Of a DNA stretch of 64,000 nt, positions 27,227 to 64,000 are shown one piece after another (within the stretch, counting starts at the first letter, position 1; each line of letters starts with the position of its first letter). A program made the translations under genes and the position numbers. The notes under the pieces are model-generated. The model did not search any database. It was not told where the DNA came from and was given only the letters and a program-made list of their open reading frames with translations. The stretch lies in assembly GCF_009617755.1 (NCBI RefSeq), contig NZ_BGZH01000002.1, positions 310,001 to 374,000 on the forward strand, written 5' to 3'. The DNA comes from Marinobacter salsuginis (lineage in GTDB: Bacteria; Pseudomonadota; Gammaproteobacteria; Pseudomonadales; Oleiphilaceae).

Positions 27227-27431
27227 CTTTGCTTTTCTCATTGGCAGGAGTACAGTGGGGCTCGTTGGAAAGATTGAGCAAAGCATTTCATCAATAAGAC
27301 CGCTCAGCTGTAATAAGTAGCTTGTCCTGTTTTTGATCCCGCCAGTTTTTTGTTTCCCGCATACCGCCGATCAATGATCACGAATGATGATCTGACGGCA
27401 CACTAAATGATTGAAATCAGGAAAGAATACT

Positions 27432-27638
27432 ATGTCTACAGTTACCGGCAACGTTAAGTTTTTCAACGAAGCAAAAGGTTTTGGTTTTATTACTCGCGAA
27501 GGCGGCCCGGACGTTTTTGTTCACTACAGCGCTATTCAGGGCGGCGGTTTCAAGACTCTGGCTGAAGGCCAGCAGGTCGAGTTCACCGTTACCCAGGGCC
27601 AGAAAGGTCCTCAGGCGGAAAACGTAGTTGCCCTGTAA
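27432..27638 (+). CDS. Cold-shock protein, CspA family
   Basis: 68 residues from ATG 27432. The fold is a single cold-shock domain with RNP1 (KGFGFI) and RNP2 (VFVHY). It binds single-stranded RNA and DNA and melts RNA structure. About 200 bp of non-coding sequence before the start leaves room for the long 5' leader typical of cold-shock mRNAs. A strong hairpin terminator follows the stop by 20 bp. Confidence 0.95.
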
Positions 27639-27658
27639 ATAACAGGCTACACGTTTAG

Positions 27659-27685
27659 AAAAAGGCAGCCGAGGCTGCCTTTTTT
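27659..27685 (+). terminator. Rho-independent terminator after cspA-like gene
   Basis: A stem GGCAGCC/GGCTGCC with a 2-nt loop, flanked by AAAAA on the left and TTTTTT on the right. The oligo-T tract works for the cold-shock gene, and the A tract would allow the same hairpin to stop leftward transcription of the Lrp-type gene. Confidence 0.9.
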
Positions 27686-27706
27686 CGTTGTTGCTCCCAA
27701 CCAAAC

Positions 27707-41990: not shown

Positions 41991-42563
41991 TCAACGTCCG
42001 GGCGAGACGCGCGCCAGCACCGTGGGATCTTCCGACAAAGGCAAGGCGATAATGGCCCCCTCGTTCGACGAGGGGAAGATCCCGGTCAGCCCCGTGATGT
42101 TCACCTGATGGGACACAAGAATAACCGGCGCGCCTTCTTCGAGCTGGTTCACCAGAGAAATCGTCTGCCGCGTCTGAGTCGGCCCGTCGCCACGATTCCG
42201 GAAAAACGAATTCAACGACGGCCACTCCGTCACGTCCCCCATGTTCATTCCGGTAGCGGTATCCATACAGCGACACCACTGACTGCTGAACACCCGCGCT
42301 TCGGTAATCCCATGGTCCGCCAGAAACGGCTTCCACGCCCGGGCCTGTTCCCGACCGACGTCGTTCAGATTCCGCTGGGTGCTGCAATCGTTAAGGTCAA
42401 AGTTACCCGGGTCCCCAGTCCCTGGTGCCAATGCATGACGCAGCATCAGAACAGCCCGCCCGTCTCTCAGAGCGTCCCAGGCTTCTTCGTTGCTATCAGC
42501 AGCAACGGCCGGTAAAGAAAACAGAAGAGTTAAAAAACCTGAAAGCAGAATTCGATTAATCAT
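41991..42563 (-). CDS. Exported histidine-phosphatase family protein
   Basis: 190 residues from ATG 42563. A signal peptide (ILLSGFLTLLFSLPAVAA) leads into a histidine phosphatase domain. The phosphohistidine motif reads LRHALAPG, with Ala in place of the usual Gly of RHG, and the second catalytic His is in VSHQVNITGL. It is probably a periplasmic phosphatase. A longer frame to 42683 covers the palindromic element and is rejected. Confidence 0.88.
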   Translation of the reverse strand: MINRILLSGFLTLLFSLPAVAADSNEEAWDALRDGRAVLMLRHALAPGTGDPGNFDLNDCSTQRNLNDVGREQARAWKPFLADHGITEARVFSSQWCRCMDTATGMNMGDVTEWPSLNSFFRNRGDGPTQTRQTISLVNQLEEGAPVILVSHQVNITGLTGIFPSSNEGAIIALPLSEDPTVLARVSPGR

Positions 42564-42620
42564 CTCCAACACCTCTTCTTTTGTTGCAGTGAACGCGGGT
42601 AAACCGCCGATGTCCGAGAG

Positions 42621-42728
42621 AGGCGTTGGGGCCGTTGTTCCAAAAATGTAGAGGGCCATGGATGGCCCGAAACAAGCGCACATGGATGTGCTCGTAGCGG
42701 TTTTTGGAACAACGGCTCCAACGCCTCA
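42621..42728. repeat. Nested palindrome element, copy 1 (CATGGATG core inside 27-bp inverted arms)
   Basis: The outer arms are 42621-42647 and 42702-42728, reverse complements at 26 of 27 positions (arm begins GAGGCGTTGG, ends GTTCCAAAAA). They enclose a 54-bp core holding two small hairpins: GGGCCATGGATGGCCC and GCACATGGATGTGC. The core resembles that of the element at 54132, but the arms do not. It lies between divergent genes (histidine phosphatase and YaiI), so it is not at the end of an operon on either side. Confidence 0.85.
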
Positions 42729-42834
42729 AACACTCAAGCCGAACCACAGTCTTGAATACGCGGATACCAACTACCAAGCTCACAACAACAAAAGGTAAAC
42801 TTTCACCAGAACCAAGCCAAAAGAAGGAACCACC

Positions 42835-52500: not shown

Positions 52501-53146
52501 GCCAGAAGCCGGCTCCAACCAGCAGCAGCGTAGCCAGCGGAGCGATCAGCAACCACCAGGTTTGCAGCACCCAGAACATGGCTGCGCTGAAAAGACTCCA
52601 CAGCACCAGCAGCGGCAGGTAAAGCCAACGCCAGGGACCTGTTACCAGCGCAACGACCAGGGCTCCTGCCGCAGCGGTGGTGCCGGGAGCGATGCCGAAC
52701 AGCGCGACCGACTGCCACTGACCGGAATCCGCCACCGCGAGGAAGGGCAATCCACAAACGGCAACCAGCCAGAGTACGACAAATTGCCTGATCGGAAGCC
52801 GGCCCTTATGGACTCCACCGCAAAACAGGGCGGCCCCGAGCAACGCCCCCTGAGCGACAAAAGCCCAACCAAACCACGTCGCCGGCCAGTTAATGGGGCC
52901 GAAATAGCCCACCAGAAACCCGTAACCACTGGTTACCCAGGCAATTGCCATCAGCCCAAGAGCCAAACGCCTTGCCGCGTCTCCCTGCCGCAGAAGCAGC
53001 GCAGGAATACCGATAGCAGCAACCACCGCCAGCAATTGCCAGGGCCAGAGATCTTGGTTGATCCGGACAAACAACCGCAGAAACACCTGCGGTCCGAACA
53101 TCACGAAATCCTGCAGCGAGTAGCTCAGCCAGTCCGCGCCACTCAC
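52469..53146 (-). CDS. DUF6064-like multi-pass membrane protein
   Basis: 225 residues with about eight hydrophobic segments, starting MSGADWLSYSLQDFVMFGPQVFLRLFVRINQDLWPWQ. I would place it in the DUF6064 family on that opening, with limited certainty. The function is unknown. It is coupled to a Tat-type aldo/keto reductase gene by a 4-bp overlap and converges on another aldo/keto reductase. Confidence 0.7.
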   Translation of the reverse strand: MSGADWLSYSLQDFVMFGPQVFLRLFVRINQDLWPWQLLAVVAAIGIPALLLRQGDAARRLALGLMAIAWVTSGYGFLVGYFGPINWPATWFGWAFVAQGALLGAALFCGGVHKGRLPIRQFVVLWLVAVCGLPFLAVADSGQWQSVALFGIAPGTTAAAGALVVALVTGPWRWLYLPLLVLWSLFSAAMFWVLQTWWLLIAPLATLLLVGAGFWLSPRPARSQD

Positions 53147-54078
53147 AGAGACCTCACATAATCCGCCATCCGCTGGCGCAGATCGTCATCCGGCAATTTG
53201 CCGTACAGCGCACCCATGTTCTCTTTCATATGCTCAACTTTGCTCGTGGCCGGAATGGCACAGGTCACGGCCGGATGGGAAATAATGTACTTGAGGAAAA
53301 ACTCCGCCCAGTTATTGACGCCGGCCTCCCCGGCCCAATCCGGCAGCGGCTTTGACTGGAACCTGCGGAACAGCGAACCACCCTGGAAAGGCCGGTTAAC
53401 GATCACCCCGATACCCCGTTCCCGGGCCAGTGGCAGCAACCGATCTTCAACATCCCGATCCAGAACGTTGTAGGTCAGTTGCACAAAATCCAGCGGCTCC
53501 CGCTCCATGATCTGCGCGAATTCCCGATGCCGGCGACCATGGGACGTAGTGATACCGATATACCGGACCTCACCGTTGGCTTTCATTTCCTTGAGGGTTT
53601 CAAGATGCCCCTGCCAGCCCAACAGATTGTGGACCTGCAACAGATCGAACTGATCAACACCCCAGCGCCTGCTCGAACGGGCTGCCTCCGACCGGGTTTC
53701 TGATTCGTCGCCGGTCCAGATCTTGGTGGCCGCAAAAATCCGGTCGTGGGCGTCCAGAGAATCCAGCGCCTCACCCATAACATCCGCGGCACTGCCATAC
53801 ATCGGCGAACCGTCCACAACGGTTCCGCCCAGATCGAAGAAGGTTTTGAGGACTCTGGTGCGCTGCGCGACCAGTTGCTCGTCACCACCAACGTTAAAGG
53901 TAATCCAGGTGCCCATGCCGATCGCCGGGATGCTTTCGTTCGCTCCCGGGATCCGGCGGGTAATCGGAGATGAAGTGGGAATTCCCGATGCATTTGCAAA
54001 CAACATCGGGGACTTGAGAGCAATTCCCGCAAGGCCGGAAGTGATAAGAAACTTCCTTCGAGTAATCCAATTCGCCAT
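53143..54078 (-). CDS. Exported aldo/keto reductase with Tat-type leader
   Basis: 311 residues. The N-terminus TRRKFLITSGLAGIALKSPMLFANASG fits a twin-arginine (RRKFL) export signal. The AKR domain has Asp and Tyr in GGTVVDGSPMYGSA, Lys in ATKIWTG and His in LLQVHNLL. It should be a periplasmic oxidoreductase that folds before export, perhaps with NADPH bound already. It is coupled to the DUF6064-like gene by a 4-bp overlap. Confidence 0.85.
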   Translation of the reverse strand: MANWITRRKFLITSGLAGIALKSPMLFANASGIPTSSPITRRIPGANESIPAIGMGTWITFNVGGDEQLVAQRTRVLKTFFDLGGTVVDGSPMYGSAADVMGEALDSLDAHDRIFAATKIWTGDESETRSEAARSSRRWGVDQFDLLQVHNLLGWQGHLETLKEMKANGEVRYIGITTSHGRRHREFAQIMEREPLDFVQLTYNVLDRDVEDRLLPLARERGIGVIVNRPFQGGSLFRRFQSKPLPDWAGEAGVNNWAEFFLKYIISHPAVTCAIPATSKVEHMKENMGALYGKLPDDDLRQRMADYVRSL

Positions 54079-54131: not shown

Positions 54132-54240
54132 GCCCGGGTGGGTCATCCCTTCGCCAGACCGTGGAGGGCCATGGATGGCCCGACCGAGCCTACATGGAAG
54201 TATTTACGGCGTGTCTGGAGAAGGGATGACCCACCCGGGC
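54132..54240. repeat. Nested palindrome element, copy 2
   Basis: Outer arms 54132-54159 and 54213-54240 are reverse complements at 27 of 28 positions (the arm begins GCCCGGGTGGGTCATCCCTT). They enclose a 53-bp core. The core opens with the same GGGCCATGGATGGCCC hairpin as copy 1, then a weaker TACATGGAAGTA hairpin. The arm sequence is unrelated to copy 1. It lies between two minus-strand genes, 54 bp upstream of the aldo/keto reductase start. Confidence 0.87.
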
Positions 54241-54273: not shown

Positions 54274-55044
54274 TCAGTTCCCGTAATGAGCATCGAGATA
54301 TTTCAGAATACGGGCAGACTCGAACAGGCCTTCCCCGGTGTTGGGATCCTCCAGGTAAGGCACCTGAACCCGCTTGTGCACCTGGAAAAACGCATCCCGC
54401 TTGCCACCGGGAATCGGCGTATAGGGCCCCGGCTTGATACGCTGCTTCGCCGGCCCGATCTCACTCCAGTGCTCCTTGCCCAGGTTGTGCAAGGTATAGG
54501 GAATTTCCAGCTCACAAAGCCGTTCCCGCACCAAACGCGAGAACGGACTGCCCTCGAAACTCCACAGGTGTAATGGCTGCTCCGGACGCTTGCCGGGGCT
54601 GACCCTCAGCCCCCGCATGGCACTGGTCACCGAAGCCACAGAACCCAGAACCGGCTGCCACACCCGGCCGCGATAGTAGGATGGCACCGGCCGGTCCGCG
54701 TATTGCCTGAACAGGTACTCGATGATTTCCTCGGATTCGTGCATGACCGTGCCGGTGTTCTGGTCCGCCAGTAATGGGAACTGTTGCTTGCCTCCCAATG
54801 CCTCCGCCTGGGCCCGGAAAACCGAACCACCCTGCGGACATGGCCGGATTTCCACATCGAGATTCAGGGCCGTCAGGGCCTCACGAACCCGCCGGCAGTA
54901 GGGACAGCCCTCCATGTCGTAGAGCACAATGGGCTTTTCCGGCTGCGGGACGTTTTTAACCACCAGGCAACCGCGCCAGGCAGTGAGGGACGACGTGGCG
55001 ACCGAACCCAGTATGTGGACGTTATGAGACAGCATATTCGACAT
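54274..55044 (-). CDS. Tandem thioredoxin-fold GST/glutaredoxin-like protein
   Basis: 256 residues from ATG 55044. Two thioredoxin-like GST N-terminal domains occur in series. The first has a CxxC site (YDMEGCPYCRRVREALTALN) and ends EEIIEYLFRQY. The second (HLWSFEGSPFSRLVRERLCELEIPY) has no CxxC, and ends SARILKYLDAHYG. No all-helical GST C-terminal domain is present. It may be a glutathione-linked redox protein. An N-terminal stretch of about 35 residues is of unclear role. Confidence 0.85.
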   Translation of the reverse strand: MSNMLSHNVHILGSVATSSLTAWRGCLVVKNVPQPEKPIVLYDMEGCPYCRRVREALTALNLDVEIRPCPQGGSVFRAQAEALGGKQQFPLLADQNTGTVMHESEEIIEYLFRQYADRPVPSYYRGRVWQPVLGSVASVTSAMRGLRVSPGKRPEQPLHLWSFEGSPFSRLVRERLCELEIPYTLHNLGKEHWSEIGPAKQRIKPGPYTPIPGGKRDAFFQVHKRVQVPYLEDPNTGEGLFESARILKYLDAHYGN

Positions 55045-55076
55045 AAACAAACCTTCTGTTGGAGACCGCGCCATTA

Positions 55077-55550
55077 TCACGCAATCTGACGATTTTCCAT
55101 TGGCTCCCGGGTACCCATGATGTGATCAAACCAGGGTTTGGTCACACACCAGTTGGCATTGGGGTTCGGCCCCATATGGTGATCATAGTGCCAGGGCAGA
55201 TTCTCCCGCGCCCAATCCGGATCCAGATGTGAGCGCTTATGTACCCGGTAGTAATTCCAGGCGCTGTAGTAGAGCGTGCCAACAAAGAATGGAGCTAAAG
55301 GCAGTAGCGGAGTGACTGCTACTGCCCCGGCAACCAGGGCAGCCACTTCCTTGGTCTGGGCGTTCCAGGTCAAGGGCGGATGACGGTAATCGTGATCAAG
55401 AAAGCCGTTCCGGCGCACATTGCGATGATGATCGTGCCAATGAAACGACCAGAAACTCTCCCGGTTTCGGCCCAGTTCATGAAGAACGTGTTTATGGAAT
55501 ACCCATTCCACGGCATTGGCGGTCAAAAGACCCAATGGAATACCAATCAT
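55077..55550 (-). CDS. Fatty-acid-hydroxylase/sterol-desaturase-like membrane protein
   Basis: 157 residues from ATG 55550, which has AAAGGAGGGCACC upstream. The histidine clusters of the di-iron family are present: HKHVLHE, HWHDHHR and HYDHHMG. At least one hydrophobic segment lies between them (AALVAGAVAVTPLLPLAPFFV). It should modify a lipid chain with O2, but the substrate is unknown. The gene stops 32 bp before the GST-like gene, on the same strand. Confidence 0.85.
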   Translation of the reverse strand: MIGIPLGLLTANAVEWVFHKHVLHELGRNRESFWSFHWHDHHRNVRRNGFLDHDYRHPPLTWNAQTKEVAALVAGAVAVTPLLPLAPFFVGTLYYSAWNYYRVHKRSHLDPDWARENLPWHYDHHMGPNPNANWCVTKPWFDHIMGTREPMENRQIA

Positions 55551-63931: not shown

Positions 63932-64000
63932 GGGTGGGGACAGGTTTCTGAAACTGTGCGGAGCCATGGATGGCGGAGCCCAAGCGTCACAGGGATGTGC
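63932..64000. repeat. Nested palindrome element, copy 3 (right half outside window)
   Basis: The core is recognisable from GCCATGGATGGC (first hairpin) and CACAGGGATGTG (second hairpin), in the same order and spacing as copies 1 and 2. The left arm is about GGGTGGGGACAGGTTTCTGA and a few further bases. The right arm would fall beyond base 64000. It lies upstream of the SDR at 62987-63805, about 125 bp from its start. Confidence 0.7.

What the first reader, a model, noticed from the sequence alone, without database searches (positions are those of the whole stretch)
42621..42728. Family of nested palindromes: a conserved double-hairpin core inside locus-specific near-perfect inverted arms
Seen directly: two complete copies of 108 and 109 bp share a core with two consecutive hairpins whose tips read CATGGATG (GGGCCATGGATGGCCC first). 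Each is enclosed in 27-28-bp arms matched at 26/27 and 27/28. The arms of one copy bear no resemblance to those of the other. In ordinary REP or MITE families the ends are conserved, so this inverted pattern needs a different explanation. Either the core inserts into existing palindromes, or the arms are made locally by copying flanking DNA, or strong selection keeps them paired. As RNA each would fold to a three-way junction.
Basis: partly seen in the sequence, partly recalled or inferred. Interest (0 to 1): 0.78.

Follow-up and report, generated by a model that had tools for sequence, protein, structure and literature searches.

The report
Dispersed double-hairpin RNA repeat family
The odd nested palindrome is one of about ninety copies in this (probably Marinobacter) genome of an RNA-like element that holds up two loops resembling docking sites for the regulator CsrA on a long stem whose letters change freely as long as they still pair.

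Summary
Copies 1 and 2 are complete (108 and 109 bp); a third is cut by the window end. They belong to a large family: 90 strong covariance-model hits in the window's genome, hits in 37 of 37 genus genomes and in 35 of 185 genomes over the class. Arms are mostly 28-29 bp and locus-specific, yet paired: between 18 orthologous copy pairs, 96 stem pairs changed on both sides and 26 on one. Leftover mismatches are G.U rather than A.C on one strand (129:24; own genome 52:7), also where both neighbouring genes run antisense (16:0). That points to folding of one single strand, most simply RNA. On that strand both hairpin tips read CANGGANG, the published RsmA/CsrA site (52 distinct copies). The closest known family is Rfam TwoAYGGAY, already proposed to bind CsrA; copy 1 scores 36.1 bits against its cut-off of 43. 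Best reading: a dispersed, mobile-like, TwoAYGGAY-like CsrA-binding RNA. Transcription and binding are untested.

The parts
42620..42646 (+). copy 1, 5' arm (27 bp)
   Evidence: 26/27 complementary to 42701-42727
42653..42668 (+). copy 1, hairpin 1; tip CATGGATG at 42657-42664
   Evidence: tip matches CANGGANG
42678..42691 (+). copy 1, hairpin 2; tip CATGGATG at 42681-42688 (energy model prefers a shifted register over 42675-42692)
42701..42727 (+). copy 1, 3' arm (27 bp)
42611..42730 (+). copy 1, whole match to covariance model R1 (110.2 bits); Rfam RF01731 at 42613-42734, 36.1 bits, below its cut-off of 43
54132..54159 (+). copy 2, 5' arm (28 bp)
   Evidence: 27/28 complementary to 54213-54240
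54170..54200 (+). copy 2, core with tips CATGGATG (54170-54177) and CATGGAAG (54193-54200)
54213..54240 (+). copy 2, 3' arm (28 bp); ends 33 bp before the 3' end of the minus-strand gene 54274-55080
63958..64000 (+). copy 3, core part of a copy cut by the window end; complete in L040
42835..43287 (+). neighbour of copy 1: DUF188 (YaiI/YqxD) gene
41991..42563 (-). neighbour of copy 1: histidine phosphatase-like gene, divergent (start chosen by me inside the longer ORF)
53143..54078 (-). neighbour of copy 2: aldo/keto reductase gene
54274..55080 (-). neighbour of copy 2: GST/glutaredoxin-like gene

Best explanation
It is a dispersed repeat of about 110-140 bp that works as RNA from the strand carrying CANGGANG. 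The RNA folds into a long stem (mostly 28-29 bp) that carries two short hairpins, each presenting a GGA loop; the two tips are 15-17 nt apart in the window's three copies. A CsrA dimer would grip both loops of one element. The stem needs only to pair, so its letters drift by matched changes while the loops stay fixed. Copies spread as whole units, lie mostly just beyond a gene's stop codon in either orientation, and are lost by deletion. Shown here: family, structure, covariation, one-strand constraint, loop conservation, whole-unit presence/absence, whole-unit duplicates in one relative. Inferred: that it is transcribed, that CsrA binds it, and that the effect is to titrate CsrA or to mark transcripts for it.
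For: Covariation on 45 own copies: cells changed on both sides 525 against a shuffled mean of 163, and 91-139 when partners are slid. Orthologs: 96 both-side and 26 one-side changes over 18 own/G009 pairs; at the copy-1 locus, 18 orthologs have a mean arm identity of 0.62 while their 491 stem cells are 476 WC, 10 GU, 1 AC, 4 other. Strand test: GU 129, AC 24 in 152 copies (p 1.4e-18); own genome only 52 and 7, and 16 and 0 in the 15 copies with both neighbours antisense. Loops: 52 distinct model hits, A at position 2 in 51 and 52 of 52, GGA in 52 of 52 in both hairpins, both N positions variable; in other families the GGA loop stays while the closing pair changes (by eye). Consensus (A/U)CANGGANG(U/A) seen in passages of PMC4353343 and PMC6849547. 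CsrA gene in the own genome and in 57 of 58 relatives. TwoAYGGAY hits coincide with elements; PMC4333381 predicts that family to bind CsrA (passages).
Against: Orientation to genes is near random (own genome, crude gene calls: >E> 17, <E< 15, >E< 20, <E> 11, 2 unassigned; 152 copies: 52, 34, 30, 24, 12 unassigned), so many copies lack an obvious sense transcript, and no shared promoter motif was seen upstream. CsrA does not explain copy number: low-copy genomes have it too. The energy model puts GGA in exactly two loops in 46 of 52 (A2) and 30 of 47 (A3) hits only, and often in another register. Hits were picked by a model that knows these loops, and the tip count used a search form that fixed C, GG and G (all 52 fitted it). 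Among the copy-1 orthologs, found by their neighbour gene, L098 breaks position 2 and L079 and L096 lack the hairpin-2 loop because of an insert. Long perfect hairpins also give sub-threshold hits to unrelated miRNA families of like size, so the sub-threshold TwoAYGGAY scores must be read with care.
Confidence: 0.68

Rival explanations
1. A mobile DNA element whose one strand folds as single-stranded DNA and is recognised by a transposase (as in REP/IS200-type systems), with no host function; the CsrA-like loops are coincidence.
For: Whole-unit presence/absence and duplicates; near-random orientation; 3 to at least 62 model hits per genome in one genus; strand-specific folding fits ssDNA too.
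Against: Y1 transposase PF01797 has no match in 12 of the 26 genus genomes with 46 or more R1 hits, the own genome among them, and 22 matches in G004, which has 6 R1 hits; other transposases were not tested. Long-resident orthologs keep pairing and the G.U bias. Loops match the CsrA site including both free positions.
Confidence: 0.17
2. Neutral upkeep: the arms stay matched because template switching in replication copies one arm onto the other (quasi-palindrome correction, recalled), without selection on a folded product.
For: Both-side changes exceed one-side changes even between close orthologs (96:26), some in contiguous blocks such as 761377/240329.
Against: Does not predict G.U over A.C on one strand nor fixed loops. 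It may act together with selection.
Confidence: 0.07
3. A two-way transcription terminator or 3'-end stabiliser near stop codons.
For: The 3' arm ends 8-50 nt from the facing gene's stop codon in 51 of 64 copies with a convergent downstream gene.
Against: No run of T after the stem; both orientations are used although one strand is constrained; 11 of 65 own copies lie between divergent genes, copy 1 among them; it needs no GGA loops.
Confidence: 0.06
4. The core inserts into pre-existing palindromes.
For: Conserved core with locus-specific arms in two copies.
Against: At 7 of 11 inspected own/G009 sites the empty side lacks the palindrome too; duplicates carry their arms; arm length is nearly fixed.
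Confidence: 0.01

Closest known systems
TwoAYGGAY RNA (Rfam RF01731, clan CL00106)
   Same: [quoted passage not shown] listed for human gut, gamma-Proteobacteria and Clostridiales (table row in PMC2864571); one relative's copy passes the Rfam cut-off (L302, 45.2 bits).
   Different: Window copy 36.1 bits and best own copy 41.8, below 43. Loops vary as ANGGAN rather than AYGGAY. Some 90 copies in one genome, as a dispersed unit with rewritten arms, which the passages I saw do not mention.
RsmX/Y/Z and CsrB/C sponge RNAs
   Same: GGA in hairpin loops, motifs usually in pairs as CsrA is a dimer (PMC4333381 passages).
   Different: Those host numerous sites in one sRNA (same passages); here many small two-site units without a common promoter seen.
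REP repeats and RAYT transposases
   Same: Palindromic, intergenic, many copies, often near gene 3' ends and in inverted pairs (PMC3733652, abstract start and passages).
   Different: REPs are 20-40 bp with a GTAG or CGTC tag at one end (same source); here about 110 bp with variable ends, and no PF01797 match in this genome.
Double inverted repeats in P. putida and P. fluorescens (degenerate GTAG-1 units joined to unrelated stem-loops)
   Same: Composite palindromes, hundreds of copies (PMC3733652 passage).
   Different: Sequences were not compared here; the passage mentions no CsrA-type loops.

Membership tests
TwoAYGGAY RNA (RF01731) | Two hairpins with GGA-bearing AYGGAY-type loops | tested here: met
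   both hairpins of copy 1 align with CAUGGAUG. GGA in both tips of 52 of 52 distinct hits (not all AYGGAY).
TwoAYGGAY RNA (RF01731) | Enclosing outer stem | tested here: met
TwoAYGGAY RNA (RF01731) | Score at or above the Rfam gathering score of 43 | tested here: not met
   Window copy 36.1; 0 of 27 own-genome hits over the cut-off, best 41.8. L302 of another genus 45.2, L185 41.0, L161 39.7, L298 32.9, L281 32.0, and no hit in L283, L270, L182. So I call it TwoAYGGAY-like, not a member.
CsrA/RsmA-binding RNA | (A/U)CANGGANG(U/A) motif in a hairpin loop | tested here: met
   The outer A/U holds for many hairpin-2 copies (ACANGGANGT), not for hairpin-1 copies read GCCA..TGGC.
CsrA/RsmA-binding RNA | Physical binding by CsrA | not testable with these tools
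   Needs gel shift or CLIP.
Csr/Rsm sponge sRNA gene | Own promoter | tested here: inconclusive
   No shared motif in the 70 bp upstream of 137 copies; individual promoters are not ruled out.
REP element with RAYT | Y1 transposase in the genome | tested here: not met
   0 matches in G000.
REP element with RAYT | 20-40 bp palindrome with a conserved tag at one end | tested here: not met
   Unit about 110 bp; ends and flanks not conserved.
MITE | Target-site duplication and conserved terminal repeats | tested here: inconclusive
   No duplication seen by eye at the sites or around the G006 duplicates; ends not conserved.
Intrinsic terminator | U-run directly after the stem | tested here: not met
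   T in only 14-24 of 137 copies at each of positions +2 to +9 after the stem.

The most novel reading that the evidence does not exclude
A self-spreading family of double CsrA-site RNAs acts collectively: tens of small decoys, made from many places in the chromosome, set the free level of the global regulator CsrA. Because only loop and pairing matter, each copy's stem is free to be rewritten, partly by one arm serving as template for the other, so the stems become unique to each locus.
Probability: 0.25. Interest if true: 0.86.

Novelty: new variant of a known kind. Interest (0 to 1): 0.64.

Why it matters
If the reading holds, a global RNA-binding regulator would face about ninety chromosomal decoy or tag sites in one genome, spread and lost like a mobile element. 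That gives a concrete test of how repeats are recruited to regulation, adds a lead on a candidate RNA family of unknown function, and supplies a natural experiment (one genus with 3 to at least 62 model hits per genome). It also offers a rich data set on how paired stems evolve.

Tried and rejected
Rejected: chance palindromes; core inserting into existing palindromes; intrinsic terminator; REP/RAYT; presence or absence of CsrA as the cause of copy number. Arm change faster than neutral was considered; the flanks beside several rewritten arms looked as diverged by eye, so I make no such claim. Gene conversion of the core between loci is suggested by swapped core subclasses at orthologous sites, but the arm comparison within genomes showed no donor.

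Led nowhere: literature on repeats, CsrA and Marinobacter (listings; PMC5864184 passages); RepRanger paper, terms not found; promoter motif upstream. Of 5 listed papers with the word TwoAYGGAY I saw passages of three and did not open PMC11661157 and PMC7657543.

Left out before counts: drop copies with stem score under 14 (number not printed). One search, at threshold 10, dropped 12 pattern hits, of which L059 and L069 look like true cores with poor arms. L026 was left out of the profiles. One search used 137 of 152 copies (orthologs of copy 1 removed). A1 used 45 of 46 own copies (L037 left out for an irregular arm). One search used the top 64 of 82 A2 rows (the other 18: 17 antisense echoes and the partial hit in L091) and the top 55 of 57 A3 rows (left out: an echo and the deleted core in L303), without hits over 150 nt. 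One search left out L097 beforehand, and its finder did not accept L079 and L096. R1 counts are floors or capped: 150 of 1676 first-look candidates scored, 62 per genome, 19 per genome. Gene contexts come from a crude ORF script of mine.

Full report
OBSERVATION. Both palindromes exist as described, one base off: copy 1 at 42620-42727 (26/27), copy 2 at 54132-54240 (27/28). A third copy is cut by the window end and complete in L040. Copy 1 lies between a divergent histidine phosphatase-like gene and a DUF188 gene. Copy 2 lies between two minus-strand genes, aldo/keto reductase and GST/glutaredoxin-like, so it is antisense to both.

FAMILY. A pattern for the two tips gave 43 hits in the genome and none backwards; 42 are elements by eye. 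Most fall in three core subclasses that differ after hairpin 2 (13, 19 and 8 of 42). A covariance model R1 from 45 own copies gives 107 hits in the genome at E up to 0.001: 90 with E below 1e-10, and of the other 17, 14 are antisense echoes of those places. R1 hits all 37 genus genomes searched (G000 included), with 3 to at least 62 hits each, and 5 of the 21 others of the order: G027, G029, G034 and G075 with 18 to 61 hits, G026 with one weak hit. Over the class it hits 35 of 185 genomes, own included. That the window is Marinobacter is my inference from this.

ARMS. Arms are 24-42 columns long with a mode at 28-29. The inner arm follows a pattern, the outer 5' arm is G-rich, and beyond about 46 nt from tip 1 there is little conservation (42 copies pooled on the 5' side). 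In the 45-copy alignment the outer stem is 96.0% paired and 28 of its 29 pairs show changes on both sides. For the gene next to copy 1, 59 of 61 genus genomes had a match and 30 loci were fetched, own included. Of these 30, 20 hold the element at the same place (19 full R1 hits; L096 with a nested insert), one (L091) has a partial hit, and 9 have none (L076, L080, L081, L082, L084, L085, L087, L089, L097); two of the 9 seem to keep one arm (L082, L097, by eye). For the 18 that my stem finder accepted, arm identity averages 0.62 (0.38-0.97), and the 491 stem cells are 476 WC, 10 GU, 1 AC and 4 other.

ORTHOLOGS WITH G009. In 400 kb each, a script found 25 own and 22 G009 elements. In 18 orthologous pairs, of the first 24 stem pairs each, 310 were the same, 26 changed on one side and 96 on both. 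Some copies are nearly identical between the two genomes, others have rewritten arms, and some have a different core subclass at the same place. Of 11 sites scored as unoccupied, six own and one G009 site read as presence or absence of the whole unit with some flank; own 721529 is the same element with a nested insert in G009; G009 87677 faces an own element with a shortened hairpin 1; G009 164770 and 249470 are rearranged pairs. I saw no target duplication by eye. In G006, three copies are 94-99% identical over 119-138 bp, arms included, so units do get copied whole.

STRAND. In 152 copies the stem mismatches, read on the CANGGANG strand, are GU 129, AC 24, GG 26, CC 5, GA 38, CU 10, AA 7, UU 5. 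These copies include related orthologs, so the p-value of 1.4e-18 overstates independence. In 65 own-genome copies alone: GU 52, AC 7 (p 1.4e-9); by context >E> 17:1, <E< 16:0, >E< 11:4, <E> 6:1, one-sided 2:1. A constraint on both DNA strands, or blind correction of one arm by the other, does not predict this; folding of one strand does. Fold energy does not tell the strands apart: both strands of copy 1 fold very well.

LOOPS. Among 52 distinct R1 hits in A2 (from L160-L189 and the copy-1 loci), all fit CNNGGNNG in both hairpins; GGA is complete in 52 of 52, position 2 is A in 51 and 52 of 52, the first N takes all four bases in both hairpins, the second four and three. Position 2 stays A in hairpin 2 where the partner is C (17 copies), so pairing alone does not explain it. 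In other families the loop keeps GGA while the closing pair becomes G-C or U-A, and some loops have five bases (by eye). Exceptions seen: L098 hairpin 1, copies with an insert in hairpin 2, one AGGGGC loop and one deleted core. The energy model places GGA in exactly two loops in 46 of 52 and 30 of 47 hits.

KNOWN FAMILIES. Rfam at gathering level finds nothing at the elements in the window. With a relaxed threshold TwoAYGGAY matches copy 1 at 36.1 bits over the whole structure and 27 places in the genome, all below 43; the same search rang in none of 14 control genomes. One element of another genus, L302, scores 45.2; of the 9 loci it was the only TwoAYGGAY hit at E up to 1. Unrelated miRNA families also give sub-threshold hits there, as long perfect hairpins will. 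PMC2864571 lists the motif for human gut, gamma-Proteobacteria and Clostridiales (table row). PMC4333381 proposes that it binds CsrA (passages). So the CsrA idea for this architecture is in print. In the listings I saw no title or abstract start that describes a dispersed family like this one; the library holds open-licence papers only.

MECHANISM. Most likely RNA from the CANGGANG strand binds CsrA through both loops, with the stem as scaffold. What follows from binding is open: decoys that titrate CsrA would fit the lack of orientation and the turnover of copies. The weak point is transcription: no shared promoter motif, and 15 of 65 own copies have both neighbours antisense. An ssDNA-folding mobile element remains the main rival.

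Noticed in passing
L079, L096, L166 (1809-2009 +), own C1:878051, and the G009 ortholog of own C1:721529: A second element of about 95-98 bp, itself a chain of hairpins, sits nested in the hairpin-2 tip of some copies at different loci and species.
   Followed up: partly
own genome, ten places such as C1:144810/144947 and C3:406110/406336: Neighbouring copies that start within 450 bp are always back to back (minus then plus): 10 of 10 pairs among the 90 strong hits.
   Followed up: partly
G034:C27:404778-405362: Three copies in the same direction at a period of 233 bp, a tandem array.
   Followed up: no
G004: A genus member with only 6 R1 hits has 22 Y1 transposase matches.
   Followed up: no
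L350 (Idiomarina aquatica), L360 (Rhodopirellula MAG): Exact subclass A core outside Marinobacter; transfer or a contaminated bin not resolved.
   Followed up: no
window 27245-27687 (+): cspA thermoregulator RF01766, 81.1 bits.
   Followed up: no
L071-L100, around the copy-1 site: A short CGCGGA-like word lies on both sides of the element in many orthologs, and an ATACGC word once at several empty sites (by eye).
   Followed up: no
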